64,000 nucleotides of DNA from Posidonia oceanica. Lineage: Eukaryota > Streptophyta > Magnoliopsida > Alismatales > Posidoniaceae. This document shows, one piece after another, positions 10,721-44,902 of this stretch. The position numbers and the translations under genes were made by a program. Location: positions 125,149,001 through 125,213,000 of the forward strand of contig JAZBRS010000029.1 in assembly GCA_037176725.1 (NCBI GenBank), given 5' to 3'. The notes beneath the pieces are model-generated. The model was not told where the DNA came from, ran no database searches, and saw only the letters and a list, made by a program, of their open reading frames with translations. Numbering within the stretch: the first letter of the stretch is position 1; each line of letters opens with the position of its first letter.

Positions 10721-13615
10721 CTAAGAACCACTCTCTCCCTCACCCTCGGGAGCTGAAGGAGCCGAAAAAGGAGCTGTAGGAGGCCGAGGCAACTGGCGAA
10801 CGGAAAGGCCCGACGGAGCCTTAGAAACAAATCGGGAGTGGTGGCTACCCGACTGGTGGCTCGGTGCAGGAGGAACGATCTCCCCCAGCCTAGCACTAGA
10901 CTCGCAAGCATACATCCGGTAGTGCCCTAGCTCTGCCTGAAGCTGAGAGGTGAACACCTTTGTTCCTTGCCTACTCTGAGAAAGGAAATGATCAAAATAT
11001 CAGACACAAGCAAGGACATAGAAATAAAAGAGCACTGAATCAAATCATACTGCCTGAGTCCGGGCAATCTCAGCGTCTTTGTCAACAACCTGCTACTCCA
11101 GCTCCCTGAGCCGAGCAGCCTGAGAAACAGAAGTCTCCTCCTGCTGTTCCAACTCCCGGATCCAAGCAGCCTGAGAAGCAACGGTCCCCTCCAGCTCCTC
11201 CAACCTCCCAACGGAGCTAGCAGCAATGAAGTTACCAGCTTGCTCCTTCAGTTCACTCTCCAGATAAGCAACCTACAAGCGGTAATGTCAAAACCAGGGA
11301 GAATTCAGCTAAAAGACAGAAAGGAAAAATAAAGACATTTATACCTTATCCTGGAGACGGGAGATCTCCTCTGAATGGTCCGGAGGAGGGGTGGTGCTAG
11401 TTGAGGGCTACAAAGAAAGGAAATACAGTCAACTACAGTTCATAATCAGACTACAAAAGCTACAAGAAATATAAAGATACCTGAGAGGCAGAAGCGCGCA
11501 GGCTCTCGATCTCTCCGGTCAGAGCAGAGAGCTGCTGAGTCAGACTACGCTTCCGCTGAGCCCGCTCATCATCCGCCTTCAGTTGCGAAAGAAGGAAATC
11601 AAGTTAGCAAGTTATCAAATGTGAATCAGCAATTTACAAAATGAAATTCAAAAGCTCACCGCTATCTCCAACTGGGCTCGGTAAGACTGAGCCTCCCCTA
11701 GCAGGGCCGCTCGAGACATCACGGCCTCCCTGGGATTTGTGTCCCCCAAAGGAAGGTTCCCGCGCCCGAGGAAGTGGGACCGGTGGAAAACCATCAAAGA
11801 AGAGAACTCTGTATCCATCCACGTGGCCCACGCCACCTCGTCCTCCTCCGTCATGTCTATCGGGGAGGGAGAACCACATCAAGCCCAGTCCAGGAGCTGG
11901 GGACCGTAGACGTCCATCCAATGGCGAGCACGACTGCCCCCACCGCGTGTCTCTCGCCAAACTCTATGAGGGGGAGGTAGAGGCTGAATCTGCCAGTGCC
12001 CCAGCTGTCGTAGCGCCCTGCCGATCTGCTGGAAATGGCAGTGGTTCCAGCAATGAATCCACACGTCTCGATCAAAAATTGCTCGGTCACGGGCAATCTC
12101 AGGAACGTCTGCATGCTCTCCCTCAACATATGGACGCTAGATTACCTAAAGGGAGTAATACATGTCAGGAAGCAGCATAAATGAATAAACAGAAGCTGAA
12201 AAGTCAGAAGAAGGTGAATTACCTGTGCCGGGACCAGAAGCTCGAAAAGCAGACGACCGACATAGCAGTTGTCATTCGCAGGCTCGAGGGCTTGCTCAGC
12301 AACAACCCAGAATAATCCTCGAGGGAAGGGAATGCCGGCTAGAGGAACTAGAGGAGGGGCAGGACACAAGAAAATGAAGTGGTCCCATGCCCACATCTGC
12401 ACAGAAAACGAGAAAACTTTCAGTAACACATAATATTCAGCGATATTTCTGAAAGTTACAAATTTAAGCATGCATTTTTACCTGAAGAAATGGTAGATTC
12501 CTGCCTAGCTAGCGAGAACTGCCATCCGTAAAGCGGAAGAGCGTGGAGTATAAGTGCGCCAGGCTGGCCGCACCCCAAGCATACTGCCCCACCCGATCCA
12601 AATCCGCTAGAAGAGGCAGGAAGATGACAAACAGCTTGGAAGAAGCATGGGAGAAGAGGACCTCCCCAAACAACACCAACAGGAAAGCCCTGAGCTGCTG
12701 GTCAGCCTCCGCGCCTAGCCCAACCACCGTTGCTGTCAACTCCTCAACCCAGCGGATCACGGAAGAAATAAATACAAGCTGGTGCTCGTGCATAGTCACC
12801 TGCTTGCCTACTAGCTCCCTCACCATACCGATGTAATCTGAGCGAACCTGTCCAGTCACCGGGCGGCTTGTCACCTGTAGGCCAGTCAACTGGGCCATGA
12901 CCTCCAGTGAAAGGACGAACTCGCCCACCCTCGTGACTATGGAGCTAGTCCGGAAGTTATACCGCTCCGCCACTGCCTCCAGAAACATGGGCGAAGGGGA
13001 AAGTTAGGAATGGACAAGAAGTGTCCAAATCCCATCTCTCCTAGGCGCTCCTACTGAAAGGGAGCCAGCATGTCATAGGACCGGCGGACCTGTCCCCAGT
13101 AGCACCGAATCACCGCCGGGGCCCGACTCTGCAAAGAGAAAAGAAAAGAATTGTCAAGCAGCTGAATAATTAAACTAAATGAGGAAAAGATTAAAAGGAA
13201 GGTTACTTGTCCTTTCAAGGCCAAAGTAGCAGTGGCATACTCCAACAGAGACGCGTCCCTACCCGGTCCCGATGCTTGAACCTTATCACGGGGAATCTGG
13301 GCCCGTCAAAAGTCCGGGGGATCCATGGCATCACCCTCCTCCTCTTGCCGGACGAAGTCTAGAATATTGCAGTACCACCCGTCGTCCTCGCCAAACTGGG
13401 CGACTAAAGGATCGACAGGCGCCGTCTCGGGCACCTCCTCCTCGGAAACTGTCTCCTTCGAGTCCTCCTCCTCAGAACTGCTGGAATCACTGGAACCCGC
13501 ACTCGGAATTGCCCCGGTCTCTGCAGCACCATCGCTGGTAGCCCCCTCCTCTGTCGGTATGGCCACAGCACCTACGGCCCCCGCCTCGACCTCCGTGGCA
13601 TCGTCACCCACTACC
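10721..13615 (-). pseudogene. Antisense gene b of T1: multi-exon MAIN/PP7-long-form-like PMD protein with coiled-coil tail
   Basis: Exons by GT-AG junctions that keep phase: 13615-13207, 13128-12482, 12396-12223, 12145-11660, 11576-11481, 11407-11345, 11272-11051 and 10975-10721 (stop). The N-terminus is acidic (SSDSSSSEEEDSKE). The PMD core reads MGFGHFLSI, VGEFVLSLEVMAQLTGL, WAWDHFIF and RPYVEGEHAD. The tail is Glu/Leu-rich coiled coil ending in a Pro-rich tip. A first exon matching that of element A is not found; the triplicated repeat 13651-14020 lies where it should be. In-frame stops (in TAG and TGA form) and one indel near 12995 break it. Gene b of element A has the same exon order and near-equal exon sizes. 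Confidence 0.78.
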
Positions 13616-14561: not shown

Positions 14562-15749
14562 TATAGATACCCCGTTTTGACACTTCCTTCATGGTAGTAT
14601 AGTTTATTACATTGGGTCGCCCCTAGAAGCTCTTGGCTCAATCCAAGGCATCTCACTTGAGCCAAACACCTATTCTCTAGTTCGAAACGTTAACCCTATT
14701 TAAACCTTAAATGTCAGCAGCTTGAATGTCCTTCTTTTCTTGACCAAATTTGGAAGAGGGACTGACTGAGGGTGTTATACGCTGGATTCCCAGCTTATAA
14801 CGTTGGTCGTTGGTTTTCCAGTGGCTAACATTGGCCACTGGTTTTCCAATGTCTAACGTGGGAACCCAGTCAGCCCCAAACTTTCTTTATTTGGCCAAAT
14901 ACAAAATCCGTGTTTTTGCCTTCTTTAGACTTTGTTGACCAGTCAATGCAATTAACACCAGCTTAATGACATTTAATCGAGTTTTAATTTGGGGATATTC
15001 CTTGATCCTGGCAGCTGTGCTTCGGAGGTTGTTATCTGCTGGATTTCCACCGTATAACACCCCTGAATTGGAAAGTTTGCTAGTCTATTCATTCAATTCC
15101 TTTTTATTACCCCCACAGGGTTAAGAGACGGATTTTTGGAGAGAGGTGAGATTTCTGAGAATTGAAATAGTGGAGAGATCCCTAGAGAGAGAAACCACAT
15201 TTTGAGAGAACTTTGAGAAAGTGGATAGAGTCTTTGAAAGAGCTTGAGTCTCCCTTTGTCATCAGTAGCATCATGTCGACATATCTTGCACTCCATGTAT
15301 AGATAAAAAGGGGACTCTCTTAAATTTTCTCTTTTCATATCATATGTTTAATTCCATAGTATAATCAAGCATATTCATTTCATATATTGATGTAGCTAGG
15401 TATACATTTCCATTAGTTGCAACCGGGGGGATCAAACCCCTCGGGTAAGTATTTCGTTGTGTCTCTTTATGTCCCTTTTTATTTATTCTGAATAAGTTAC
15501 TACACCATATTGATCCAAATTTGCATCATTTCTATTTGTTTTGTTAACATTTGTCATACAAGGAGGAAGAAGAAAGAAGAAGAGATTCACCAAGCATGGG
15601 CACCCTTGGGCAACGCAGGCGTTGTCTCAAGGTAGCTGAACCCACAACCATCACACATCTCCCCAAGGAGTCTCGAGGGCCAGCAAAAGCAAATCGAGAG
15701 TGGCGATCACACTGACTTCAACACACGTGGAGTGGAGAAGTCAGATACA
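14562..15749 (+). mobile_element. 3' LTR of T1
   Basis: Starts TATAGATACCCCGTTTTGAC (TG degraded to TA by a transition) right after the polypurine tract and ends near GTCAGATACA. The length is about 1.19 kb. It contains inverted-arm units (14774-14857, 15031-15058) and a PBS-like TGGCGATCAC at 15701-15710, 40 bp before its end. The right edge is inferred from where element D gag sequence resumes. Confidence 0.75.
14774..14857. repeat. 28-bp-period inverted-arm array in T1 LTR (3 units)
   Basis: Units at 14774, 14802 and 14830, each 9-nt arm, N10, 9-nt arm (for example GTTATACGC...GCTTATAAC). A fourth isolated unit, GTTATCTGC-N10-CCGTATAAC, is at 15031-15058. Confidence 0.8.
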
Positions 15750-16062: not shown

Positions 16063-16409
16063 TGTAGATATCCTATTTTCGCATTTCTGAGAGTTCTTTT
16101 GAGGATAGAAACCTTAAGGCGCCCCAAATCTCATGCCTAAGTTTGATAACACATCTTCCCGACTTCTTTAAAGCATCCCTAGACCCTACCTAGACTCAGG
16201 TTGTTGGCTGTGGCAGAGGTAACTCGCTCAGGCTCAAGACAAGTCCAAATACCCTAGGTATCCTTCACTTCAACTCAGATTTAAAATTAGATTTGAGTTA
16301 ACAGAGATGCTTCCTTGATTTCATACGCTATCTGTAGTTTCCCAGCCTCCCATCTTGTTTCCTCTGGCAAAAACCTAGGAAAATAGCTAAAAATGACCTA
16401 GGCAAGTTA

Positions 16410-16570
16410 GTAGCCACCTGGGGAGGCGACCCACATAGTAGCCACCTAAGGCGGCGACTACAACTATCGCCCATTTCCTAGCCGACTACACTAGCAGCCA
16501 TCCGAGGAGGTGGCTCAGTCAGAAGCCATCTCAGGAGGCAACCCATGTGGACGTCAACTGGAAAGGCGAC
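16410..16570. repeat. 28-bp-period array of 21-nt inverted-arm cassettes (6 units)
   Basis: Unit starts are 16410, 16438, 16466, 16494, 16522 and 16550, exactly 28 apart. Each unit is a variant of GTCGCC-N9-GGCGAC (21 nt) followed by 7 variable bases. The 3' LTR copy (31021, 31049, 31077, 31105, 31133, 31161) has the same period and some better-preserved arms, for example GTCGCC at 31077. Confidence 0.9.
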
Positions 16571-16939
16571 TGGGTGATCGTGGGTAGCAGTTGCTCCCCA
16601 CTATCCCCTCAACTCTCAGGCGCCAGCTCATCAAGCGACTGAATGGTTGTGGAACCGCCTCGGTCTGCCCACGATCTTTGATCATCAGGCGTCACTCAAT
16701 GCGGCGACTAGCGATCGTGGCTCCTTTCGAACCGCGTTTCCACAGTTATTTCCCACTCCCCCCTCGACTATTAGGCGCCAGCTCATGCGGCGACTAAAAG
16801 TCGTGGCCTCGTTCTCGGGTCGTCCCCCACTTTGACCAAGCGGTTGCTAGGTTTAGGCGCCACTCCAACTGGCAACTCAAACTAACTGCCATTTTTCTAG
16901 AATTTTCTGAACTCCAACCGTCCCTACACCCCTAGAGTC

Positions 16940-16947
16940 TATAAATA
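16940..16947 (+). promoter_or_regulatory. TATA box of LTR A
   Basis: TATAAATA in a C-rich setting, with purine-rich AGAGAG sequence starting about 40 bp downstream, as expected around a plant LTR start site. The same octamer is in the 3' LTR at 31551-31558. Confidence 0.75.
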
Positions 16948-17509
16948 GACCCCCTAGGCTGGTGGTTTGAGGGTCGGAATTTTAGAAAGAGAAATTCCCC
17001 CAGAGAGGAACTTTCAAAAAGAGACAGAGCCCTGTCAGTTGTGAGCCACCTTCAGAAAGCTAGTTTTCCAATCCAGAAACACTATCTCCTCTCCCCAATA
17101 GGCTACCAACCTGAGCTTCTACCTCCAATCCGGGAATCCTCAGCTACGCTGGAGCTCCGACCGTGCTTCCTTCCAACCTCATTGCACACAGCATAAGGGT
17201 GAAAGGGAGTATCTTCTTCCAATCTAGTTTCTTACTACATCTCTTTACATTCCTTAGCATAGGATCATAGCATATGCATACGGGGAACAACCCCCCGTTA
17301 GTATTTATTTTCTTTTAGTCATGTCGTTTCATTCACCTCTGTTACTGATACTACATCGAAGCTAATCTATGTTGTTTTGTTTTGAAGGAAAGGAAGGAAC
17401 TCACGCAGCACGAGGAAGCTGCTAGACGACATCCTACCGTCGATCTAGTGGTCCGAGGACCCGCATCAACATAATCTCCCCCCAGGTGTCTTGTCTGCCC
17501 AGAGACGAG

Positions 17510-17519
17510 TGGTGATCAC
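17510..17519 (+). other. PBS-like decamer inside LTR A
   Basis: TGGTGATCAC (TGGCGATCAC in the 3' LTR at 32093-32102) repeats the first ten bases of the PBS at 17596, 86 bp upstream. The same internal copy occurs in LTR D (33693-33702, minus) and in the T1 LTR (15701-15710). Confidence 0.7.
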
Positions 17520-17595
17520 AACAAAGGCTGTCGACGTCGTGGAAGCACTGACATCTCCTTAAACACCCCCCCGAATTCCACATCTACAAATTAAG

Positions 17596-17613
17596 TGGCG
17601 ATCACGGTGGGAC
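17596..17613 (+). promoter_or_regulatory. Primer binding site of element A
   Basis: TGGCGATCACGGTGGGAC lies 7 bp after the 5' LTR. Element D has TGGCAATCACGGTGGGAC at the same place, so the site is conserved. It begins with TGG, as expected opposite the tRNA CCA end. The primer tRNA is not identified here. Confidence 0.75.
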
Positions 17614-17838
17614 TCGGCTTTAGCCAACCCCGTGCTACATGAGTCAGTTCCTCCCTTTCTTTCCATTATCCTCATAGATTTAGGAGTAGTTTTTTTAGGT
17701 TCGGATAATCGTGTGCTTAGGTTTTCACGATATCCCGAACCTTTTTCGTTTTTTCTCTCCTTCTGTTTCTGACGTCAGTAAAATCCCAAGCTCCAACAGC
17801 TCGGGCTATTTTACTGAGGTTAGGAGATTGTGCTGTGA

Positions 17839-17915
17839 GCCGCCAGTCCTGGCAGCGTCTCTTTGAGCCGCTCCTCAAGAGGGCGACTGAAAGAGACGCC
17901 GTTTAAGCAGGCATC
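17839..17915. repeat. 28-bp-period inverted-arm array (3 units) in leader of A
   Basis: Units start at 17839, 17867 and 17895. The arms are degraded forms of GTCGCC/GGCGAC (GCCGCC/AGCGTC, GCCGCT/GGCGAC, GACGCC/GGCATC), but each unit is exactly 21 nt and the period is exactly 28. Confidence 0.85.
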
Positions 17916-18626
17916 TCCCTCAGTCTGGTTTTTTTTTACTGCAGACCTCTTGGTTTTTTCCTGTATTTTGTGTTGTGTTTTTAGATCTGCAGTAGCACTA
18001 AAAAATAAAAACAACTTCCCATGTCCACTGTATTCTAGTTTTTTAATGGTTTTTAGCTTTGCTTGTGTCCACCCTTAAGGTGGAAACTAATTGTTTAGTA
18101 TTAAAGTGGAAGTCCCTTGAGGAAGTCTTCCTCTAGCTATAACAGTTAACCTGAGCGAACCCAGGCCAGTGCAAGTCGCTCTCCCATACTCAGTGTTAGC
18201 TGCAATAGTTAGATCAAGATCTCAAGGTGTCCCAAGTATTGTTATTGGCTTCTCTCTCTCTCTGAGCCAATAGTGAAACTTGGTAGATACTTTACACCTT
18301 AGTACTTTGTGTTTGTTTATTGCTTTTTGGTTTGTTAAGTGCCGAGCCTAAGGACAGAATCCTAGGTGGAGGGTCCCTCTTTAGAGAGACAAGCCCCCCA
18401 TCTAGGCCCCTCTTGGTGGACCCTAGTGAAGGTCAAGGAGGAGTACCTTAAAGCCAACCAATCCCAGTTGCTTATGACCCACGCAGGTTTAATTAATCAA
18501 TCCATTAATTAAACACCTAAACAAGTAAAAGCAACGCATTGTTTGAAACCTGCTCTCGTTTTCCTTCTTGACTGTTGCGTGGTCTGTCCAAGACAGACCC
18601 GGTTTGCTGATTGAACCAGGGGCACA

Positions 18627-18703
18627 GCTGCCAATTCAGGAGGCGCCTCGCTGAGCTGCCGGTGAAATCGGTGACTTGTCAGGCCACCTGTAAAACAGGC
18701 GAC
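18627..18703. repeat. 28-bp-period inverted-arm array (3 units) in leader of A
   Basis: Units start at 18627, 18655 and 18683, with arms GCTGCC/GGCGCC, GCTGCC/GGTGAC and GCCACC/GGCGAC, 21 nt each. Confidence 0.85.
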
Positions 18704-18879
18704 TAGAAGGGGATTACGATTCAGTGCATTGTTTGCAGGGATTAGGCATACTACTAATCACAGGGCTATAAGCACAGACTGTTTCAATTTCTGTTAGCTT
18801 TTCTTCAAATTCTATCGAGTCTGTATTAATTAGTGTTCCTCGAGTCTGTAATTTCTTTTTTTATCTCCTGTAATAGTCT

Positions 18880-18990
18880 AGAAAAGCAAAAGCAAAAAAA
18901 AGAAAAGGAAAAAGAGAAACAAAAAAAAAAGACAAAAGAAAAGAAAAAAGAGAAAGAAGAAAAAAAAAAGAAAAAAGAAAAAAAGAAAGT
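18880..18990 (+). repeat. A/G-rich low-complexity tract before gag
   Basis: About 110 bp of AAAAGAAAAAGAG-like sequence ending 20 bp before the gag ATG. It would translate as a poly-Lys/Glu peptide, so I do not count it as part of Gag. Confidence 0.9.
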
Positions 18991-19009
18991 ACAAAGAACA
19001 TTGGAGCGC

Positions 19010-20473
19010 ATGAGCACTACCTCTACCTCCATGGCACAGCAAGGCCAAGGCCCGGATGGATCTTTCATCAGAGGCTTAGCCTCACAAATGGAAAGGCCAG
19101 GAACCCCCGGCTTCTCACTAGCCACCGGCCGGCGAAAATTCCCGCATACCTCCATCCCCTTCGATTACCACACTGATACAAACGAAGAAGGAGGGGAGGC
19201 GGATCAGTCCCGAACAATAGACATCCCGCCCGAGTTCACACGTCCCGAGGCAACTTCTAATGTTGTGCCTCTCGTTGTGACTACTTCCTACCCCATTGAG
19301 GAGGAGACCTATGAGGTCCGGCAATCCCTGGCTCATCAACAACATTTCATGCACACAAACCCACAAACCTCCACCCTCCAAGAACACCACAACCACCTAT
19401 TCCATACGCCCATCTACACGACGCCCACCAACCCTTATATCCACCCAACTCCACCATATGCAACCCCATACCTGCCACAACCACCCGCTAACGTGCCATA
19501 CTACCCCACTCCACCTCCACCACCATTCTTCTATCCACAACAACCTCCCATTAACACACCTTACTGCCCTACACGACCTCAATCATCATTCTTCCATCCA
19601 CAACATAACCCATCACTACCACCATTCCCACCAACACACCAGCACCCGAGCCAGGGGCATTACGCCGCACCAGGGACTGATCTTAAGAGAATGATTGCCG
19701 AAGCATTAACGGAGGCCGGGGTCACTTCCAAGACGCCCATTGGCTACGACATCTCCAAGTTCCCTCACTTTGCCCTTCTCCCAGGGTTTAAAATGCCAAA
19801 AATGAGAAGATATAACGGTACAGAGGATCCCAGGAACCACATAGCTGCCTTTACTATGGATACTCTACCATACCGTTATGACGTCGGGCTCATTACATAC
19901 CTCTTCTTCAAAACGCTTGAGGGAGAAGCCTTAAAGTGGTTTGACACCCTGACTTCCTATGATCTCCAAGATTTTAGGATAATTGAGGAGAAATTTCTAA
20001 ATCAATATAGTCACCGGGTGCCACACAAACCCACTGCAGGCGACCTCACAGTTGAGAGGATGAGGTTGAATGAGGACTTCGTCACCTTCGCTAGCCGGTG
20101 GAGGGACATGGCCGCTAGATCAGAGTACTACATACCTGAAGGCCAAGTCGTGGAAATAATCGCAAGAAATACCACGGGAGCACTCAGAGCTGGACTGTTG
20201 ATAGGTGACTTCCACACCTATCCACAGTTATATGAGCGGGCCGCCAAGGTGATGCGGAACAGAGAAGAGCTACCATTCCTGGAGCTCGAAGCAAAAAGCC
20301 GGAAGAAGACTACAGGACATACCATAGAAGCTGTCATTGGCAACATGGCACAACTAACCACACAGCATCAGAGGGGATGGAAAGGGCAGCCCTTCCAACA
20401 GCCTCAATATAAAGTGGAACCACAGGGGCAGAATTCCAACAGTTCCAACCCCAGCACCCTAATCCCCTGGTAA
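19010..20473 (+). CDS. Gag protein of element A
   Basis: Start at ATG 19010 (MSTTSTSMAQ), chosen because element D gag begins with the same peptide. The frame is intact for 487 codons. Residues about 50-220 are Pro/His/Tyr-rich; about 260-420 are the retrotransposon Gag domain (MPKMRRYNGTEDPRNH, GEALKWFDTL, FLNQYS, FASRWRDMAARS). Gag forms the virus-like particle that packages RNA. It runs to a stop at 20471 after a one-base shift near 20430; the knuckle (CxxH-type) lies in the next frame. An intact Gag in an element without RT fits a Gag-only, pol-dependent parasite. Confidence 0.88.
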   Translation: MSTTSTSMAQQGQGPDGSFIRGLASQMERPGTPGFSLATGRRKFPHTSIPFDYHTDTNEEGGEADQSRTIDIPPEFTRPEATSNVVPLVVTTSYPIEEETYEVRQSLAHQQHFMHTNPQTSTLQEHHNHLFHTPIYTTPTNPYIHPTPPYATPYLPQPPANVPYYPTPPPPPFFYPQQPPINTPYCPTRPQSSFFHPQHNPSLPPFPPTHQHPSQGHYAAPGTDLKRMIAEALTEAGVTSKTPIGYDISKFPHFALLPGFKMPKMRRYNGTEDPRNHIAAFTMDTLPYRYDVGLITYLFFKTLEGEALKWFDTLTSYDLQDFRIIEEKFLNQYSHRVPHKPTAGDLTVERMRLNEDFVTFASRWRDMAARSEYYIPEGQVVEIIARNTTGALRAGLLIGDFHTYPQLYERAAKVMRNREELPFLELEAKSRKKTTGHTIEAVIGNMAQLTTQHQRGWKGQPFQQPQYKVEPQGQNSNSSNPSTLIPW

Positions 20474-21510
20474 ATGCTCAACAGGGGCAGAACAGCGGTC
20501 AATACAAAGCACCACCTCAAGGGCAAAGGGACTACCACAACGTTCCTCCTCCACAGGCACCTAGAGGACCAAGGAGACAAAGCTACCCACCACTTCCAGA
20601 GACGATCCCAAACATCTTCAGGATGCTGATCGAAAGTGGGGACTTACAACTCCCAGTGCCAAAACCGAATGCTCCCAACGTAAACATGACCAAGTACTAT
20701 GTCTACCACCAGAAAAACGGGCACACACTTGAGGAATGTTATGTGTTAAAAGATCGAATATACGATCTAAATGATAAGGGACAAATAATGTGGTCAGCCC
20801 TCAAGGACAGATTGAAAGAGGCTAGGACGGGACAGCACAAGTTGCAGATACACCAGAACCCTCTGCCTAATCACCCGGTGGTGCACCTAGAGATAGAAGA
20901 CAACCCACCTGAAGCCAAGACCGTCACCATGTGCCTGATTGAATCAGAACCAGAGCTGGCTTCCTCCATTGTGGAAAGCAACATCATTAAAAAGATGGTA
21001 GAAGACGCTAAGGGATCAGATTGGTCAGATAAGCTTGTTAATGCATTATGGGCATACTGCACCACCATAAGGACAGCAACAGGTCAAACCCCCTATGCTT
21101 TAGCCTTTGGTATGGAAGCAGTGGTCCCATACGAGATCCTGATCCCCTCATTAAGAGTTAAGATTGATAGGAGAATGTCTGCCGAAGAAAAGAGGCAAGC
21201 TTTACTCCATCTAGAACTCCTTGATGAGAAACGGCTGACAGCCACCGAGCATACGTGTGTCTACCAACAAAGGTTAACCAAGGCTTACCAGAAGAAAGTA
21301 ATCGAACGCAAGTTTAAAATTGGTGATCTAGTGCTTAAAGAAGTGTTGCCCTACAATAAGCCCCACCCTAAGGGAAAGTTAAAGCCAAATTGGGAAGGAC
21401 CCTACATAGTGGTTGCTGTATATCCAGGGAATGCTTATCGACTGTCCCATAACGGAATGGATCTTCTTGACCCTTGGAATGCAATGCACCTGAAAAAGTA
21501 CTACCCTTGA
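20434..21510 (+). pseudogene. Gag C-terminus fused to integrase C-terminus by internal deletion (element A)
   Basis: This frame is open from about 20434 to TGA 21508-21510. It reads the Gag tail with the YYVYHQKNGHTLEECYVLK knuckle, an acidic stretch, then from about 20985 the integrase C-terminal region (GSDWSDKLVNALWAY, TGQTPYALAFGMEAVVPYEI, NWEGPYIVV, HLKKYYP). The integrase part aligns with T1 from about 6320 to 6834. Everything between Gag and the last part of integrase is gone, yet the frame is uninterrupted across the join. No catalytic DDE residues remain. The GPY/F tail could still bind chromatin or integrase partners, which is speculative. Confidence 0.88.
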
Positions 21511-27728: not shown

Positions 27729-27915
27729 CAGAGGGAGGAGGAAGGAAGAGCACCCCCACGCCGCCGCCACCGCACCACGCCGGAGCCCGCACACCGCCGC
27801 CGCCGCACCCAGCCGGAGGAGCACGCACGCCGGAGAGAGGGGGAAGGAAGAAGAGAAGTTTGAAGCCACTGGAAAAGGGGGCAACTGCCAGTTTTGGCTA
27901 CTGACTCGTAACCTG

Positions 27916-28079
27916 GTCGCCAGTAGAAGGGGTGACTCAGTCAGACGCCTCTTCAACAGGCGCCTTACCCAGCTCTTCGCGCGTCAACTTTCCCGCCTCG
28001 ATTTGAACCCTTTGAAAGAGCACGAACCTAGTCGCCCTAAAAAGAGGTGACTCAACAGGACGCCAGAAAGGACGGCGGC
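27916..28079. repeat. Inverted-arm cassettes between antisense genes a and b (A)
   Basis: Two pairs of 21-nt units: 27916 and 27944 (28 apart), 28031 and 28059 (28 apart). Best unit: GTCGCC-N9-GGTGAC at 27916-27936. It lies upstream of gene b and downstream of gene a. Confidence 0.85.
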
Positions 28080-28283
28080 TAACAACGGCAGAGGGTTTTT
28101 ATCCCTTAATTCCCCCATAAAACACGAACCGATACATTAACAAACGACAAAACACAATTCAGAAGCTAAAATATGATTCAACCCAAAATGTAATTCAAGA
28201 ACTGAAACATAATTCAACCCGAACTTAAACTTAAAAGCTAAGACATGGTTCAACCCAACTTAAAATTAAAATTCAAAACATAA

Positions 28284-29642
28284 TCAGCCATGCAGTGCCA
28301 TGCTTGAGCGGTTGAGCCCAAGCATCTTCAGGAATTCCTGCTTATCATCAACATACTTCTGAGGAGTGGGGCAGCACCATGCGTACCACTTCACGTACTT
28401 CGCCTCTTGGGACTCTCGAGCAGTTGCAGAAAGCCGAGGTGCACTCAGAGACACTCGCCTACTGATATAAACCCAACAGGCTATGTACTCCAGGACCATC
28501 CGCTCATCCTGGTCACCGTCTTCCTTGCGAATGCGGATCAGAGGGGTCAGAACTGCATCAGCCTGGACAACTAGCTCCTGATTCAGCAGACGAGAGCAAC
28601 AATGGATGGGATACAGCACAAACGATGTGGCACCCGCCAGGACAAGCTCAAGGTCACTGTGAGCTGTGCTCATCACCCGCGCTTTATGAGCTCCAGGTAG
28701 CTTCGAAACAAAGTCAAAATCCTGTAGTGACAAGTGTCCCAGACGGAGACCAGAGTCATGGAAGCTCAGACCTGTGAAATCTGTATCACAACAGCAATGG
28801 GACATGAACCAACTGTGCAGCAACAGTGGGGAACCGAAGAATTTCCCTGAACAAGAGGCACTGGTGAGCCCCTCCATGGTGTAAGCCAGCACAGCAGGAG
28901 CCAAGCACAAATCTGGACGAACAGCGACCAACATCAGGAGATCCATATGGTGAAGATCCATTGTGAAATTTGCATCTACAAACAAGGCAAGGCTGCCAAC
29001 TGCCACAAACAAGCACTTCCTTAGCTCTGCTTCAGCAAGTTGTCTGGTGCTAAGAACCTCCCACAGGCCTCGAAGAAAGAGTCTCCCCGAGTGCATCAAA
29101 GCCTTGCTAGCCTCCAGGTCCATTGCTAAATACTCGCCTATCTTCCTGGAACCCACTGTCTCGACGGAAATGGCAAAGCGATCATCTGCCGCCTCAGTAG
29201 ATTCCGCCGCCAACCCAAGCAAAGAGGATACCTCCTCACACGTAATCAATGTCTCTCCACAAGGAAGATTGAAGGTGTTGGAGGAACCATTCCAAAAAAC
29301 CATCAAGGCGTGCAACAATGGCCAAGGCACAGTCGTGCGAATCAAGTCAAGGAGCTTGTCAAAACCACTACACCCGAAGAGATGTCTGTTGTTCTCTGCA
29401 CAATTGATCAAGCCAGCCACCCATGGCAGAGTATACCGAAAGGAATTGTGGAAATCCAGGCATCCCGTGAGGTTCACTACAGCCTAAACAAGCAACCTTC
29501 AGAGGCTAAACCACAAAGAAAGCATGCAAAGACTAAGAGGAGAACATACCTGGTCATTCCAGATAGCTTTCATCAAGTGGTTGGGGATATCAATCACCCT
29601 CTTCACTTGGAAGGTCGGAGAAGAGAAGGAAGGAAGCTTCAT
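28284..29642 (-). CDS. Antisense gene a of element A: two-exon PMD protein, apparently intact
   Basis: Exon 1 is 29642-29550 (ATG, 31 codons, donor CAG|GTATGT). The intron is 29549-29484 (66 bp, acceptor TTTAG). Exon 2 is 29483-28284 and ends in a stop. The 430-codon product has no internal stop, unlike most frames here. PMD features: VPWPLLHALMVFWNG, CGETLITCEEVSSLLGL, LFVDANFTMDLHHMDLL, GLTSASCSGKFFGSPLLLHSW, and a KYVKWYAWCCPTPQKYVDD end. The homologue in T1 (8539-9885) keeps the exon plan but is stopped. PMD proteins include MAIN and MAIL1, which act in gene and transposon silencing. Whether this one helps the element or counters host silencing is open. Confidence 0.82.
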
Positions 29643-29771
29643 GGTCAAGATAAGGGGTTTACTTGTGCAGAATGTTTCCTGAAAAGTAAGGACGCCCGTC
29701 TTTTATCTCTCCCTATCAAAAGAATCAGAGTTTAAAACGGTTTTTGAATTAAATAAGCCAGGAAATCGCGC

Positions 29772-29820
29772 GTCGCCACAAAAAGCAGCGACTGGTTCAG
29801 TCGCCCATGAAAGTGGCGAC
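29772..29820. repeat. Inverted-arm cassettes upstream of antisense gene a (A)
   Basis: Units at 29772-29792 (GTCGCC-N9-AGCGAC) and 29800-29820 (perfect GTCGCC-N9-GGCGAC), 28 apart, 130-180 bp upstream of the gene a ATG. Confidence 0.9.
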
Positions 29821-29842
29821 TAAACCATCAGGACGGACTACT

Positions 29843-30650: not shown

Positions 30651-30663
30651 AAGGAGGGGCATC
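30651..30663 (+). promoter_or_regulatory. Polypurine tract of element A
   Basis: AAGGAGGGGCATC directly before the 3' LTR; the same tract as in T1 with one base fewer. Confidence 0.9.
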
Positions 30664-32178
30664 TGTAGATATCCTATTTTCGCATTTCTGAGAGTTCTTT
30701 TGAGGGTAGAAACCTTGAGGTGCCCCAAATCTCATGCCTAAGTTTGATAACACATCTTCCAGATACTCCTCGACTTCTTTAAAGCATCACTAGACCCTAC
30801 CTAGACTCAAGTTGTTAGCTGTGGCAGAGCTAACTCGCTCGGGCTCATGACAAGTCCAAGTACCCTGGGTATCCTTCACTTCAACTCAGATTTAAAATTA
30901 GATTTGAGTTAACAGAGATGCTTCCTTGATTTCATAGGCTATCTGTAGTTTCCCAGCCTCCCATCTTGTTTCCTCTGGCAAAAACCCAGGAAAAGAGCTA
31001 AAAACGACCAAGGCAAGTTAGTAGCCACTTAGGGAGGCGACCCACATAGTAGCCACCTAAGGCGGCGACTACAACTGTCGCCCATTTCCCAGCCGACAAC
31101 ACTAGCAGCCATCCGAGGAGGCGGCTCAATCAGAAGCCATCTCAGGAGGCGACCCATGTGGATGTCAACTGGAAAGGCAACTGGGCAATCGTGGGCAACG
31201 GTTGCTCCCCACTATCCCCTCAACTCTCAGGCGCCAGCTTATCAGGCGACTGGACGGTTGTGGAACCGCCTCGATCTTCCCACGATCTTTGATAATCAGG
31301 CGTCACTCAATGCGGCGACTAGCGATCGTGGCTCCTTTCGAACTGCTTTTCCACAGTTATTTCGCACTCCCCCCTTGACCGTTAGGCGCCAGCTCATGCG
31401 GTGATTAAAAGTCGTGGCCTCGTTCTCGGGTCGTCCCCTACTTTGACCAAGCGGTTGCTAGGTTTAGGCGCCACTCCAACCGGCGACTCAAACTAACTGC
31501 CATTTTTCTAAAATTTTCTGAACTCCAACCGTCCCTACACCCCTAGAGTCTATAAATAGACCCCCTAGGCTGGTGGTTTGAGGGTCGGAATTTTAGAAAG
31601 AGAAATCCCCCTAGAGAGGAACTTCCAAAAAGAGACAGAGCCCTGTCAGTTGTGAGCCACCTTCAGAGACCTAGTTTTCCAATCCAGAAACACTATCTCC
31701 TCTCCCCAATAGGCTACCAACCTGAGCTTCTACCTCCAATCCGGGAATCCTCAGCTACGCTGGAGCTCCGACCGTGCTTCCTTCCAACCTCATTGCACAC
31801 AGCATAAGGGTGAAAGGGAGTATCTTCTTCCAATCTAGTTTCTTACTACATCTCTTTACATTCCTTAGCATAGGATCATAGCATATGCATACGGGGAACA
31901 ACCCCCGGTCAGTATTTATTTTCTTTTAGTCATGTCGTTTCATTCACCTCTGTTACTAATACTACACCGAAGCTAATCTATGTTGTTTTGTTTTGAAGGA
32001 AAGGAAGGAACTCACGCAGCACGAGGAAGCCGCTAGACGACATCCTGCCGTCGATCTAGTGGTCCGAGGTGTCTTGTCTGCCCAGAGATGAGTGGCGATC
32101 ACAACAAAGGCTGTCGATATCGTGGAAGCGCTGACATCTCCTTAAACACCCCCCCCCCCCCCGAATTCCACATCTACA
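30664..32178 (+). mobile_element. 3' LTR of element A
   Basis: 1515 bp, the partner of 16063-17588. It carries the six-unit array at 31021-31181 and a TATA box at 31551-31558. Near its end it lacks about 28 bp present in the 5' copy and has a longer run of C before GAATTCCACATCTACA. Confidence 0.95.
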
Positions 32179-32238: not shown

Positions 32239-33602
32239 ACTCAAAGTGGCTCTACTTCTTAAGTTATTACAAGCTCTTAGAAAGGAAATTACAAACTCTA
32301 CTCCTACCTACACTATTACAAGTATCTTGAAAAAGAAAATACAGACTCGATGCAATAAAATACATAAGAAAAGTAGGTTACAACTCTTTTAAGCAAACCA
32401 ACCTGCAAATAAGGCATGGAAAGTGATCTGCCTCAATTCGCCTTTTCGAATGGCGACAGAACTCGTCGCTGCTTAGATAGGCGATAGGGTCAGATGATCG
32501 TAAGACAAGTGACTAATGTGCCTGCTCAGACAGCAACTGTAGTCTGTTCTCAACAGATCACACGTCAGAAAATGCTGATTAAAAAAACAAGTTTCAAGCA
32601 GAACGTCGGTTCTACTTGTTGGAATAGTTAATTAATCAATTAATTTAACCTACGTTCTCTCAACTGTTAGGTTCCTAGGTTGGGGGTAAGGATAACTTCA
32701 TGGGATCTAAAGGTCATGCAATAAGATTCAAACTCTTCAGGTACCGCTCTTTGACCTTCGTTAGGGTCCACCAAGAGAGCCTAAGTGGCGGGTTTGTCTC
32801 TCTATAGAGGGGCCCGCAACCTATGATTCTGTCCTTAAGGTTGTATCCTAACAAACCATAAAGCGGTAAATAAACACAAAATACTAGAGTATCAAGTATC
32901 TATCAAGGATTATTATTGACTCAAGGAGAAGAAAGGAGTCAATAACAAAACCTTAGGACACCTTGAGTTCTTAATCTAACTATCACAACCAAACACAGAG
33001 TATGGGAGAGCGACTTACACTCGCCTGGTTCACTCGGCTTGATTGTTCTAGCTAGAAAGTGATTCCCCCAAGGAACTTTAACTCTAATATCAGAAAAATA
33101 GTTTCCACCCTAGTGGTGGACACAAACAGACCTAGAAACCGTAAAAAAATTAAAAACACAGTGGACAGAAAATTTTGTTATTTTCATGCGACTGTAGATC
33201 TAAAACACAATGTAAATAGGGGAAAAAATGAAGGATCTGCATGGAAACTGTATCCAGATCCAGTCGCCGATTGTAGAGGTGCCTAGGTGAGTCGCCACAT
33301 ACAAGTGTGATGAGACCAGGCACCGCGTAAACAGACGGCTAGATCTGGAAGCTTTCTGTCGTCAGGATAGAGCCAATCTAGTCATCGAAGCTATAGACAC
33401 CGAAGTTATTCGTTGTCGTAAGTAGAGATGACTAGATATGGGGTCTTTTCTAACGTCAGAAGAAAAAAAAATCCGATAAAGGGTTTAGGTGTCGTGAAAC
33501 CCTATACGCACGACAACCAAACCGAAAACAACACCTAGATCTAAGAAAATAAATGAGGAAAGGAAAGGGTGATGCTCACGTAGCACGGAGGGTTGGCTCA
33601 AG
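32239..33602 (-). other. Leader of element D
   Basis: No gene. It carries inverted-arm cassettes at 32437, 32465 and 32493 (28 apart; the first is TTCGCC-N9-GGCGAC, the third is weak) and at 33263 and 33291 (28 apart). The arrangement matches the leader of element A read in the other direction. Confidence 0.7.
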
Positions 33603-33627: not shown

Positions 33628-35503
33628 TATGGATGTTGGAATTGGGGGGTTGGATGAAGTAGTCGATGCTTCCACGTACGTCGACGACTTAGGTGATCGC
33701 CACTTGTCGATTTGTTGTACCAACTAACAAGATGCAGGTGGGAGATATGTATGGATGTGGGTCGTCGGCTCACTAGATCAATGGCAGGATGTCGTCCAGC
33801 GGTGTTCTCGTGCTACGTGATTTTTTCCTTTCCTTCTACACAAATAGAATAGATCTGGGTAAGTCTGGGTATAGTAAACAATATGAGAAAGAGCATAGAA
33901 TAATATAAGCAAATGAATTTAATACTAACCGGAGTAGTTCCCTGCATGCATATGCTATGTGTCCTAATTAAGGAATATAATAATGAAATAAAAAGTAAAT
34001 TAGAATCAAATACTCTCTTTACCCTCGTGCTGTATGCTGTGGGATAAGGAAGTGGAGACATGGACGAAGCTCCGACAAGGCTAGGGATGATCTCTGGGAT
34101 CTCACACAAAATGGGGTAGAGCAGAGGGGCAATGGATCACTCAGAATCTCTCTCTCCCAAAGTAATGGTCTCTCAAAGCTCTCTCTCAATCTAGGAATTT
34201 CACCACTCTAGGAAGTGCCTCTCCTTGAGCTCTAGCTCTCAGAGCCTTTTTATAGAGGTGTGGGGCTCGAATGGATAGGATCTAGGAAGTTTCTAGAGAC
34301 AAATCAGATATTTTAGCAAGTCGCCGCATGGACAGGCGACAGGCATAAGTATCCCATTTTAATGACGTGGAAATGACGTGGAAGCTCGCTAATCAGATAA
34401 GAAAATGGGCCACATCAGCAGATCGCCGCTATGAACGGCGTCGAGCTAACATGGGGACGACATGGAGGATCAGATTAAAAGATAACAGAAAAGTCCATGT
34501 CAGCAGGTCGCTGATGAATAAGGCGCCTAGCCTCAGATATTTTATGTTTAATGACGTCGAAATGACGTAGAGGATAAGATTAAAATATCCATAGAGTCTA
34601 GTCGCCGCATTCTACGGCATCGAGCTACTGGAATATTCTAGACTTATTTTAAATGTGGTTTTGAGTTTAAAAGAGGAACAACACATTAAACACGTGGTAA
34701 TTAATTCAAAACCAAGATAGAATTCAGTCTTCTAGGATTTTCTAGGACTTTCCTTAATTTATTGCTATTTTTATATGATATACATGATATACCATGTATT
34801 TAAGTACTAGAAAAATCATAGAAATAATAATAATTATGGGAAAAACGTTATAACACTTTATAAAAATCCCATATATGATATCAAAGTCCAAGATAACGAA
34901 ATATGTTGAGAGAGAGTGGCAGAATATTCATCGCCTATTATTATGGCGACAACACAGACTAGTCACCTATTGAGATGGCGACTAGTGGTGTCACCGAATA
35001 GAGAGGCAACAAGCTAGTCTTTTTGTATTTTCATCCACGTCTTTTATATTAATCTAGAGAAATATGTTAAAAACCCTGAAAACTTTGAAAATTCCATGAA
35101 ATTATAAAAACAACTTCTTTAACATTAAGATACTCTAATCTATCACTAATTTGAGTGCAATGAGAGTATTAACTCTGCCACAGCTAATAAATTCTCATTA
35201 AATAAGGTCAAAGGGACTCAAACTTGCCAATAGTTTAAGCAGAATAAGGGTATTAGCTCTACCACAGCTAATAGACTTATGCCGAGAAAAGTGTTCAAGG
35301 TACTCAAACTTGCCACTAGTTTGAGCGTGTCAGCTCAGCCACAGCTAACGACCTTGAATCAAGTAAAATCAAGTAATGTTTTTAAGTAAATCATGGAAAA
35401 TCTGAAAAATATGATATAAGATCCTTAGTCATGTGATTCAGGATGCCTTAAAGGTTTCCTATCCTTAATGAACTCTTGGAAATACGAAAATGGAATATCT
35501 ACA
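33628..35503 (-). mobile_element. 5' LTR of element D
   Basis: On the minus strand it starts TGTAGATATTCCATTTTCG at 35503 and ends near CATCCATA at 33628; about 1.88 kb. The first 100 bases match LTR A closely. TATAAAAA at 34254-34247 is a likely TATA box. It contains eight 21-nt inverted-arm cassettes and an internal PBS-like decamer (33693-33702). Confidence 0.88.
34320..35010. repeat. 21-nt inverted-arm cassettes in LTR D (8 units)
   Basis: Units, each exactly 21 nt: 34320-34340 (perfect GTCGCC-N9-GGCGAC), 34422-34442, 34507-34527, 34601-34621, 34930-34950, 34962-34982 and 34990-35010, plus a weaker one nearby. Spacing is irregular except for the last pair (28). The central 9 bases all differ. 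Confidence 0.88.
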
Positions 35504-36126: not shown

Positions 36127-38557
36127 TGTAGACACCCCATTTTGACACTTAGCGGTAGATCAAACTTGGAGAAAGCAAGCTCAGAAACTGCGGATTCAAC
36201 CTTTTCCCTAAAACCCAACCTTTCCACTCAAACTGACCCAATTTGACCTAAAACCAAATCCCATTCAAAAACTACCCCAAACCTACCCAAAACAATTCAT
36301 TTCCCATTTCCAAAACCAACCAAAACCTCCAACCAAGCCCAAGCCCGTTTCTAGCCCAGCTACTGAATTACACGTCTGGTCGCCGCATGCATAGGCGACT
36401 GAGCCCTGTCGTCAGGATCAGCGGCGACTGAGTTTGGTGCCAGATGTTGGGGCGACTCGACAGTAAATCAGCATACCTCCCAAGCTCCCCTGCTACCGGC
36501 CATCGGCCACCTGACACCCGTCCCATCGCCACTTACTCACCGCTACCTCCAAGCGTTACGTGCCAAGAACCACTTACTCTCTGGCACGGCGTCACCTCTC
36601 GCCGGCAGACAACCCGCACTCACAGTCCTCACTGCCACCCGCCGGACATCCTGCCACCGGTGACCTCGACCTACAACCATCAACTCCCTCGACTGCCACC
36701 CACACTCACAACCACTCTCTGACCCTCCCTCTGCTGATGTCAGCTCTTGCTAGAGCTAATAGGTGGAGGACACTCATCGAAACCCAAGAGAGGATTCCAG
36801 AACAGACGCCCTAGCCATTCCCATGCAAACCATGGAGAACCCATTCGACAGCCGACTTGCACCTCTCCTCCTCTCTCGCCGCTTGCTCCAAAGCGCAATT
36901 GAGGAACCCAAATACCTTCACACACCCCCCAGCAACATTCCCAACCCTTCCAACTCCCTTCTAGCATCCTAGATTGCCGCGACAACCCCAAACTCACCGC
37001 CTCCTTGCCGCCACCGATCGACATCTCCAATGGCCGCACCTCAGCTCCGAACTCCCCCAAACTCCGGGCACACCTCCGCGAGGATGCCACGAACGCATCC
37101 AAATCATCCCGCACGCCCACTGTCGCCTCCTCCACCGCTGCAACCTCCACGCTGGCAAGCTCCGACGAGCTAGGTCGGGGGGCACATCTATGCATCCCCG
37201 CAGGTGAGTAACTCTACCATTACCTTCGTGTCTTCTTTGGCATGCTTTTTAGCTATGAAATTAGATTTTACAATAGCTTAACCAGCCATTCATGACCATC
37301 TTCTCTGGAGCCGGAGGCCTGCCAGGTTAGGCGCTGCGTGATGTGGTGACTAGCCTGTGCCTCCGACTGTCGTTTGGCCGGACTTTGGGTCGCCGCTCCA
37401 GCCGACCTAGAGCTCCGTTTTCCTTAATTTTTGCATGCTTGTTATCATGAATGCTTGCTCTGTAAGATTGCATGTTTAGATTTCAATTTAGCTTTGCCAT
37501 GTGTTCCAGATCTAGTCTCAAAGGTGATTGTTTGGAACAAGGATTTGCGGTGCTGTCGCCGTTGACAGCGGCGACTCACCTGCAACTTCCGATCGTTCCT
37601 CTGGCCAACTTTGGACTGCCATATCTTGCGACCTAGGCATCCTTTTTGTTGTCTATTTGTTTGCTTGTCTTCCTCATCATGCCCTCTTTACGACCATGCC
37701 TCTAGATTTCAATTTCACATCACGTAGCTAGCCTGTTTTTGGCTGTGAAGGCCACTGTCTAGCAGAGCTGTAAGCCTCTCTACCGCTGCTGTCCCAAGCG
37801 ACAGGCTCAGGCACCTCTCACCCAGGCGACTAGTCCCAATAGCTACTCTGATCGGCGATCAAGTTCCTCGCCGATCCCCCTAGCGACAGGCTCCGGTGCC
37901 TCTCAGGCTGGCGACTGGCCTTGCAGTTCAGACAGTGGCTGAGCCACCTTGTTTGCCGCATTACGCTTTAATCATTTCGCTCGCCCGTTTTTAGACCTTG
38001 TTTTCCGGGCTTTATTTATCGTCGCTTAGTCGCATTTTTGCCTTAATCAATTTTCTAGCATACCTTAATCATGCATCATAACATCATAACATGTCTAGCA
38101 AGCTCAAGCATTCATTAGGCATTCATAGCATCTCTCGCCCCTTGGGCGTACAGTAAGGCATTCAATTGCTAAAATCCTGCATATGCGAGGGTTAAGCCTA
38201 AGAAAGACTGATTCTTCAGACGTGTCGGGGGTGCCTAACACCTTCCCCGCACGTAACAGGAGTCCTTGCCCTTTCTCTTGGCACACAATGACCATTATGC
38301 CCTCATCCTAGGCACGAGTCATATCATTGCATCTTTTTGCATGGTTTCCATGCATTTCCCCGATTTTCCTTGTCTCTCGATTTAATAGACACGGTGGCAA
38401 CTCTGATTTAGTCTTATCTTTCTTTTTTCCCTCTTTTTCCAGCGTTTCCGAGTAGAGCATCCCTCCTCGGGTCCAGCCGCTAATAGAAGCCTAATTTCGG
38501 TCGGTGCACGTGAGCTTTGGCATCGTGCATGACGCGTCGATTTCCAGGGTTACTACA
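36127..38557 (+). mobile_element. 5' LTR of element B
   Basis: 2431 bp. It contains inverted-arm cassettes at 36379, 36408 and 36436 and a perfect one at 37555-37575. Near the end it has the conserved GTGCCTAACACCTTCCCC block (38231-38248) shared with LTRs C and E. Confidence 0.93.
36379..36456. repeat. Inverted-arm array in LTR B (3 units)
   Basis: 36379-36399 perfect GTCGCC-N9-GGCGAC; 36408-36428 GTCGTC/GGCGAC; 36436-36456 GGTGCC/GGCGAC; spacing 29 then 28. Another perfect unit is at 37555-37575. The 3' LTR copies are degraded by transitions. Confidence 0.88.
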
Positions 38558-38558
38558 G

Positions 38559-42625: not shown

Positions 42626-42639
42626 GCACATACATGCCA

Positions 42640-44853: not shown

Positions 44854-44902
44854 CCTTCTTCATAGTGTAATAGCATTCTGTTGCATGACATTAGCATCTC
44901 AT

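What the first reader, a model, noticed from the sequence alone, without database searches (positions are those of the whole stretch)
16410..16570. Strict 28-bp-period arrays of 21-nt inverted-arm cassettes (GTCGCC-N9-GGCGAC plus 7-nt spacer)
In LTR A six units start exactly 28 bp apart. The same 21+7 architecture recurs as pairs or triplets at 17839/17867/17895, 18627/18655/18683, 27916/27944, 28031/28059, 29772/29800, 32437/32465/32493, 33263/33291 and 34962/34990. Single perfect units are at 34320, 36379, 37555 and 29800. Arms are conserved and can pair; the central 9 nt and the 7-nt spacers differ every time. Exact length across different elements and positions (LTR, leader, beside antisense genes) implies constraint or a dedicated copying process. 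Possible roles are RNA hairpins for packaging or dimerisation, protein-binding sites with fixed helical phase, or small-RNA sources. I know of no named element with this design.
Basis: seen in the sequence. Interest (0 to 1): 0.85.

Follow-up and report, generated by a model that had tools for sequence, protein, structure and literature searches.

The report
Arrayed two-part motif in plant retrotransposons
A short two-part DNA signal, often repeated every 28 letters in the control regions of jumping genes and present in tens of thousands of copies across this plant's genome, looks like a landing pad for an unidentified DNA-binding protein rather than the RNA hairpin first suspected.

Summary
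GTCGCC-N9-GGCGAC (up to 2 mismatches) occurs 45 times in the window against a mean of 1 in shuffles; 11 pairs start exactly 28 bp apart against 0 in 200 shuffles. In the 2.96-Gb genome the exact motif occurs 37,261 times against 29 for a control pattern.

Arm pairing as the conserved property is not supported. GGCGCC-N9-GGCGAC, which breaks one arm pair, is as common (19,123 + 18,871), while the compensated GGCGCC-N9-GGCGCC occurs 218 times where independent halves predict about 9,700. Between element copies of three families the arms are conserved and the 9-nt centres diverge two to three times faster; two same-element LTR pairs show no such contrast.

Units lie in U3 upstream of TATA (elements A, C), in the leader, and upstream of an antisense plant-mobile-domain gene. 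Best reading: multimerised, oriented binding sites for a DNA-binding protein, host- or element-encoded, serving retrotransposon promoters. Nearest known kind: palindromic RM boxes of Sirevirus LTRs; core, half-site rule and 28-bp register differ. Function and binding protein are untested, and weak extended symmetry around single units leaves a structural role possible.

The parts
16063..17588 (+). 5' LTR of element A (TGTAGAT...ATCTACA); target-site duplication GAACT precedes it and follows the 3' LTR
16410..16570 (.). six 21-nt units at 28-bp period in U3, about 0.35 kb from the LTR start
16619..16639 (+). oriented single unit, GGCGCC-type left half, 321 bp upstream of TATA
16688..16708 (+). 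oriented single unit, 252 bp upstream of TATA
16774..16794 (+). oriented single unit, 166 bp upstream of TATA; flanks also largely complementary
16856..16876 (+). oriented single unit, 84 bp upstream of TATA
16940..16947 (+). TATAAATA, presumed core promoter of LTR A
   Evidence: promoter role inferred
17596..17613 (+). primer-binding-site-like TGGCGATCACGGTGGGAC, 7 nt after the LTR
   Evidence: assignment by recalled resemblance
17839..17915 (.). three units (3, 2, 3 mismatches) at 28-bp period in the leader; the related inverted element C has a triplet in the same register at 33263-33339
18627..18703 (.). three units (3, 3, 2 mismatches) at 28-bp period in the leader before the gag-like ORF; element C has a triplet at 32437-32513
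27916..27964 (.). pair of units downstream of the 28284-29477(-) ORF
28031..28079 (.). second pair of units in the same interval
28284..29642 (-). antisense plant-mobile-domain (PMD) gene: ATG at 29642, first exon to 29550, 66-nt GT...AG intron, second exon from 29483 (predicted from sequence)
29772..29820 (.). pair of units 130-178 nt upstream of the ATG of the antisense PMD gene
30664..32178 (+). 3' LTR of element A with the same U3 units (31021-31487)
32437..32513 (.). leader triplet of inverted element C (1, 2, 6 mismatches; third member weak)
33263..33339 (.). leader triplet of inverted element C (2, 3, 4 mismatches)
34320..34621 (-). four single units of element C U3 (34320, 34422, 34507, 34601)
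34930..35010 (-). three units of element C U3, spaced 32 and 28 bp
36379..36456 (.). three units (spacings 29, 28) near the start of LTR B; more decayed counterparts at 46354-46431 in its partner LTR
37555..37575 (.). exact single unit in LTR B
37810..37915 (.). further units of LTR B (37810, 37867, 37895; 2 mismatches each)

Best explanation
Each unit is an oriented two-part DNA site, G[T/G]CGCC-N9-GGCGAC(T). Copies are kept in the control regions of LTR retrotransposons of several families: as arrays in a 28-bp register near the start of U3, as single directional copies between the array and TATA, in the leader, and in front of an antisense PMD gene. The most likely mechanism is that a sequence-specific DNA-binding protein with two contact points 15 bp apart (a dimer or a multi-finger protein) reads the two hexamers, tolerates GGCGCC in one half but requires GGCGAC in the other, and gains avidity from repetition. 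Bound arrays would switch on, or protect from silencing, the LTR promoter and the antisense gene. Shown: sites, positions, register, half-site rule and conservation of arms between copies. Inferred: that a protein binds, that it acts on transcription, and which protein it is (host factor, or one encoded by autonomous relatives).
For: Genome-wide excess of 37,261 against 29. Half-site rule: T..A 37,261, G..A 19,123 + 18,871, G..C 218 where independent halves predict about 9,685; recognition, not pairing, fits. In three element families the arms diverge less than the centres: A 0.125 vs 0.271 (p 1.9e-8), C 0.149 vs 0.411 (p 1e-4), B 0.138 vs 0.389 (p 4e-5; Fisher tests that treat positions of related copies as independent). 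Between the two LTRs of one insertion the arms change no less than the flanks (A 0.075 vs 0.040, p 0.09; B 0.192 vs 0.086, p 0.004), so the conservation arises through transposition. In eight A-family LTR copies directional units stand at set distances before TATA: all four of 84, 166, 252 and 321 (each +/-1) in six copies, three of them within 3 bp in two. Directional units also prefer A at loop positions 1, 6 and 7 (51, 47 and 52 of 73 distinct loops). Units precede the antisense PMD gene, and element B, without a Pfam match in the 5 of 11 interior ORFs tested, has them too, as expected for a trans-acting reader.
Against: No binding, expression or methylation data. The TATA distances come from related copies, not independent origins: of 87 directional units, 43 have a TATA[A/T]A within 21-400 bp, 30 of these are in the eight A-family copies at the distances named, and the other 13 have mostly other distances. 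Single units show a modest excess of complementary outer flanks (directional singles n = 28, z 3.2; symmetric singles n = 30, z 2.5; tandem n = 64, z 1.1), and some inner positions a weak pairing excess: positions 2-8 p 0.01, the other three none; positions 4-6 z 3.2, the other three at most 1.3; 10 of 14 double changes at paired loop positions stayed paired, against 4 of 13 in outer flanks. A bare half-site model does not predict these. Leader units lie downstream of the presumed start site. No known plant factor with this site was identified. The faster-than-flank change of centres is not explained by simple binding.
Confidence: 0.58

Rival explanations
1. The units are target sites of an element-encoded anti-silencing protein, as VANC binds its tandem motifs: autonomous relatives encode the reader (perhaps the antisense PMD protein) and both they and non-coding relatives carry the sites. 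This is the best explanation with a particular reader.
For: Units sit in non-coding regions and upstream of the antisense PMD gene; element B, without recognised coding domains in the ORFs tested, carries them; motif density is also what distinguishes VANC21 targets (PMC5735166, passages).
Against: No DNA-binding activity of PMD was tested here; Arabidopsis MAIL1/MAIN, the proteins with a transposon-related domain, act in silencing, not anti-silencing (PMC5418596, start of abstract in the listings). A host factor explains the data equally well.
Confidence: 0.2
2. The units work as nucleic-acid hairpins (RNA in packaging or dimerisation, or extruded DNA), with arm sequence fixed by a hairpin-binding protein and a tolerated G.A mismatch.
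For: Most arms pair; 6 of 8 folded arrays have z below -2.5, the other two -0.6 and -1.05; some single units have complementary outer flanks; 10 of 14 double changes at paired loop positions stayed paired.
Against: Compensated arms are missing genome-wide (218 vs about 9,685); 2 of 46 double-variant arms compensatory, 4.4 expected; in homologous arms 59 one-sided changes break and 56 make a pair, and 3 of 6 double changes at paired positions stay paired, too few to decide; predicted folds mix unit hairpins with pairing between units; U3 units upstream of TATA would be in RNA only at its 3' end (inference).
Confidence: 0.13
3. The palindromes are mainly a hot spot for host small RNAs, as reported for maize Sirevirus palindromes, and centres vary to escape.
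For: Centres change faster than flanking element DNA (A OR 2.8 p 4e-16; C OR 3.2 p 5e-6; B OR 1.9 p 0.007); maize Sirevirus palindromes attract small RNAs (PMC10760457, passages).
Against: No small-RNA data here; it does not explain conserved arms or the half-site rule; [quoted passage not shown]
Confidence: 0.06
4. Ordinary minisatellite expansion of one ancestral palindrome, drifting without function.
For: Head-to-tail register; tandem repeats are common in Retand elements (PMC11963269, abstract and passages).
Against: Units of an array do not share centres or spacers; arms stay conserved while centres diverge; triplets in the same register in A and C leaders.
Confidence: 0.03

Closest known systems
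RM boxes (palindromic repeated motifs) of Sirevirus (Ty1/copia) LTRs, PMC2829016
   Same: Multi-copy dyad-symmetric motif with CpG; at least 8 copies per element; clustered in the LTR upstream of TATA with further copies upstream of an extra gene (ENV there, antisense PMD here); proposed regulatory, untested.
   Different: In 12 of the 13 RMs of Table 3 the core is CGG-CCG with 4-6 bases between; here GTCGCC/GGCGAC with 9, mostly in a 28-bp register, one half allowed to be GGCGCC. No RT was found in element A; what it shows is a gag-like ORF, a weak Ty3-type integrase-tail match and antisense PMD.
VANC21 target motifs (YAGTATTAY) of VANDAL21 transposons, PMC5735166
   Same: Short motif at high density in non-coding parts of a mobile element, evolving through tandem copies.
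   Different: There binding and demethylation are shown and motifs are arrayed in one orientation; here two-part, LTR elements, no binder known.
BII boxes of the tobacco Tnt1 U3
   Same: U3 boxes of an LTR promoter; PMC3316501 (passages) says they bind defence-induced factors.
   Different: Ty1/copia; sequence and organisation differ (details of the BII repeat recalled, not read).
Tandem repeats and antisense ORFs of Retand elements, PMC11963269
   Same: Long Ty3-type elements with antisense ORFs between pol and 3' LTR and tandem repeats.
   Different: Those repeats are family-specific units of 8-100 bp in the internal region; 'hairpin' and 'inverted repeat' do not occur in that text, 'palindrom' occurs twice (not read). 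Their antisense domain is TRP28; here PMD.

Membership tests
Sirevirus RM boxes | repeated dyad-symmetric motif, at least 8 copies per element | tested here: met
   22 units (up to 4 mismatches) from the 5' LTR to the 3' LTR of element A
Sirevirus RM boxes | clustered in the LTR upstream of TATA, further copies before an extra gene | tested here: met
Sirevirus RM boxes | CGG-CCG core (12 of 13 published RMs) | tested here: not met
   core GTCGCC/GGCGAC; Table 3 of PMC2829016
Sirevirus RM boxes | carried by a Sirevirus (Ty1/copia) element | tested here: inconclusive
   no RT among the ORFs of element A tested; sub-threshold Ty3-type integrase tail (E 0.0015) and PMD; neighbour D, which lacks clear units, has Ty3 order RT before integrase
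RNA hairpin element | compensatory changes in the arms | tested here: not met
   alone too small to decide
VANC-type target array | bound by an element-encoded protein that removes methylation | not testable with these tools
   no binding or methylation data
VANC-type target array | dense motif copies in non-coding regions of the element | tested here: met
Retand/Tat-like element (host of the array) | antisense ORF between pol and 3' LTR | tested here: met
   antisense PMD ORFs before the 3' LTR of element A; most of pol was not found
Retand/Tat-like element (host of the array) | TRP28 domain in the antisense ORF | tested here: not met
   PMD (PF10536) found, no TRP28 (PF04195) match in the ORFs given
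Retand/Tat-like element (host of the array) | reverse transcriptase of that lineage | not tested
   no RT found in element A; no tree was built

The most novel reading that the evidence does not exclude
One two-part recognition code has been shared and kept by many LTR retrotransposon families of this genome, coding and non-coding, so that a single trans-acting protein, possibly the antisense-encoded PMD protein, activates or de-silences all of them: a VANC-like counter-silencing or master-activator system in Ty3-type retrotransposons, with variable centres changing under pressure from host small RNAs.
Probability: 0.2. Interest if true: 0.86.

Novelty: new variant of a known kind. Interest (0 to 1): 0.62.

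Why it matters
Tens of thousands of copies of one two-part site, in the sampled loci tied to LTR retrotransposons and in the best-studied family placed upstream of TATA, give a concrete handle on what drives, or un-silences, these elements in a 3-Gb genome: the reader protein can be fished with a defined 21-bp probe. Palindromic LTR boxes are known from copia-type Sireviruses; here the kind appears with another core, a strict 28-bp register and a half-site rule that can be tested in vitro, in elements one of which bears weak Ty3-type traces. The missing compensated form also shows how a striking palindrome can be mistaken for a hairpin.

Tried and rejected
Relatives outside this genome: a viral contigs pattern scan gave 5 contigs (L001-L005), which I did not examine; viral-contig searches with the RT ORF of element D and with the PMD ORF gave no relatives; the gag-like ORF gave no hit among 7,982 scored candidates. 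So conservation across species is untested.

RNA hairpin reading: tested by loop columns, arm doubles, homologous pair changes, genome counts and folding; rejected for the arms, not fully for the flanks of single units. The small loop tests are noisy: the largest excess among 12 position pairs was at an off-register control pair (2-7, p 0.0005).

Unbiased search for any-sequence 6-9-6 hairpins in tandem: loop 9 with distance 28 was the top combination (7) but barely above the next (6), because many arms are imperfect.

Ascertainment: the L030-L049 loci were chosen through the motif, so positions within 60 bases of the assumed search hit were left out; these places were entered by hand and are approximate. 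One search, a first version, and one search left out nothing. One search was given 8, 1, 8 and 5 loci (19 different ones of the 44 loci L006-L049), picked from the matches; L006 and L032, which also match, were not given, and L031 (A, C), L042, L048 and L049 (C) and L043 (B) yielded no arm positions. Spacers diverge clearly only in family A (0.287; B 3 of 14 positions, not significant; C none counted).

Counts of further arm variants were not obtained: GACGCC-N9-GGCGTC was asked repeatedly, GACGCC-N9-GGCGAC and GGCGCC-N9-GGCGTC once each, all answered busy; GTTGCC variants were never sent.

Full report
Setting. The window lies in a 2.96-Gb genome of unnamed origin (G000, contig 28). Plant mobile domain (PMD) ORFs and nested LTR retrotransposons mark it as plant nuclear DNA. 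Element A is a complete insertion: 5' LTR 16063-17588, 3' LTR 30664-32178, both TGTAGAT...ATCTACA, flanked by the 5-bp duplication GAACT; the LTRs align at about 95%. It has a gag-like ORF (my reading; no Pfam match) and, at 20413-21507, only a weak Ty3-type integrase-tail match (E 0.0015, below cut-off). No RT was found among its ORFs tested, so it looks non-autonomous. Two antisense PMD ORFs lie at 24760-25503 and 28284-29477; the second can be joined to a 5' exon with ATG at 29642 through a 66-nt GT...AG intron (predicted, no transcript seen). A related element C lies inverted at about 35503-32400. Element B (LTRs 36127-38557 and 46102-48480, 88%) gave no Pfam match in 5 of the 11 interior ORFs of at least 110 aa.

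Units occur at every listed place. 45 units with at most 2 mismatches against a mean of 0.99 in shuffles, 11 pairs at exactly 28 bp against none in 200 shuffles, and a sharp preference for a 9-nt centre rule out chance. Part of the number is duplication, as paired LTRs count twice.

It is a genome-wide system. The exact motif occurs 37,261 times against 29 for the reversed control. In twenty evenly spaced 10-kb stretches of one contig, 9 have at least one unit and 5 have six or more. In 308 kb of collected sequence, partly chosen through the motif, 218 units gave 64 pairs at 28 bp, 22 at 56, and 8 each at 32 and 84. Of the 50 listed GGCGAC-N{0,23}-GTCGCC places, 33 have a 7-nt and 6 an 11-nt spacer. 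Of 44 loci, 41 have a match of at least 100 bases to the window, not always in an LTR; L007, L020 and L044 have none. L007 and L044 carry units all the same; L044 has four near a TGTAGACACCCC start.

Arms are not constrained to pair. The second base of the left arm and the fifth of the right arm pair T-A in the motif. Counts: T..A 37,261; G..A 19,123 forward and 18,871 on the other strand; G..C, which would pair, 218. Independent halves predict 19,123 x 18,871 / 37,261, about 9,685. So one half must read GGCGAC and the other may read GTCGCC or GGCGCC. Only this pair was tested genome-wide. In the 308-kb sample 2 of 46 double-variant arms were compensatory against 4.4 expected. Among homologous copies 59 one-sided arm changes break a pair, 56 make one, and 3 of 6 double changes at paired positions stay paired, too few to decide. 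Evidence on the other side: single units have somewhat complementary outer flanks (z 3.2 and 2.5 after removal of near-duplicates; tandem units 1.1), a few loop positions show weak pairing excess, and 10 of 14 double changes at paired loop positions stayed paired, against 4 of 13 in outer flanks. Strand-switch correction of imperfect palindromes during reverse transcription could produce this without selection (my inference); a structural role for single units is not excluded.

Arms are under selection between transpositions. Between copies of the A, C and B families the arms diverge 0.125, 0.149 and 0.138, and the centres 0.271, 0.411 and 0.389 (Fisher p 1.9e-8, 1e-4 and 4e-5, optimistic because copies are related). 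Arms differ from flanks only in B (0.138 vs 0.254, p 0.004); in A and C they do not. Between the two LTRs of one insertion, where change is expected to be neutral, arms change no less than flanks (A 0.075 vs 0.040, p 0.09; B 0.192 vs 0.086, p 0.004) and do not differ from the centres. Arms are thus mutable, as CpG-bearing DNA in plants is expected to be, yet are retained in lineages that transpose. Centres change faster than the rest of the element (OR 2.8, 3.2 and 1.9), which I cannot explain fully: either the flanks are also constrained or the centres are favoured to change.

Position. Tandem units lie about 250-500 bases from the LTR start in A, B and C. Directional units (GGCGCC...GGCGAC) lie between them and TATA in A: in six LTR copies at 84, 166, 252 and 321 bp (each +/-1) before TATA, and in two further copies at three of these distances within 3 bp. 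These copies are homologous; of 87 directional units in all, 43 have a TATA[A/T]A within 21-400 bp, 30 of them in these eight copies at these distances, the rest mostly at other distances. Of 73 distinct directional loops from the list, 51 have A at position 1, 47 at 6 and 52 at 7. Other units lie in the leader (17839-17915, 18627-18703), with triplets in the same register in element C, and 130-178 nt upstream of the antisense PMD start codon. The units at 27916-28079 lie upstream of an antisense ATG at 27622, but that frame stops after 26 codons, so I make no claim of a second antisense start there.

Interpretation. A symmetric or directional pair of hexamers 15 bp apart, conserved in sequence but not in pairing, multimerised upstream of TATA and before an antisense gene, fits binding sites for a protein acting on transcription or chromatin.

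Comparison. Sirevirus RM boxes are the closest published kind (section 9 of PMC2829016 read; other passages): palindromic, 8-32 copies, upstream of TATA and upstream of the ENV gene. Core, spacing and half-site rule differ. I saw no Sirevirus feature in element A, but beyond Pfam domains I looked for none. The 2016 paper on maize Sirevirus palindromes is not held; I saw it only as cited in PMC10760457 and PMC5311732 (passages). VANC targets (passages of PMC5735166) and Tnt1 BII boxes (passages of PMC3316501) are functional analogues. PMD as the most frequent extra domain of Gypsy elements is reported in PMC9289625 (passages). Library searches for the hexamers with LTR terms (1,400 papers hold 3 of 4 terms, 12 listed) and for palindromic repeated motifs in Ty3 elements (2 papers) showed in their listings no report of this motif; the unlisted papers and the subscription literature were not seen.

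Noticed in passing
14798-14859: A second kind of 28-bp period in the LTR-like stretch near 14567: two copies of a TTGGCCACTGG-TTTT-CCAATGGC-type palindrome, different in sequence from the motif.
   Followed up: partly
28284-29642 (-): Antisense PMD gene inside element A with a small canonical intron (predicted); further PMD matches at 24760-25503 (-) and 12512-13003 (-), and weaker ones below the cut-off at 24219-24587 (-) and 9031-9627 (-).
   Followed up: partly
16063-32178: Element A is a complete 16-kb insertion with 5-bp duplication GAACT and about 5% LTR divergence, apparently without RT.
   Followed up: yes
36127-48480: Large LTR pair (about 2.4 kb each, 88% alike) around an interior without Pfam match in five of 11 ORFs tested; inverted relatives of the interior at 50-64 kb.
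   Followed up: partly
16663-16862: CpG observed/expected 1.18 in the stretch with directional units, against 0.62 for the window, recalling the CpG islands of RM boxes.
   Followed up: no
17596-17613: The primer-binding-site-like TGGCGA... shares its start with the right arm GGCGAC(T); tRNA-Arg-type sites of Ogre/Tat elements begin TGGCGACT (recalled). Coincidence or ancestry not tested.
   Followed up: no
17836-17918: Around the leader unit 17867 the spacers on both sides are also complementary, giving a long imperfect palindrome (fold z -3.8).
   Followed up: partly
L006, L009, window 34930-34990: A second spacing mode of 32 bp (11-nt spacer) recurs beside the 28-bp one.
   Followed up: no
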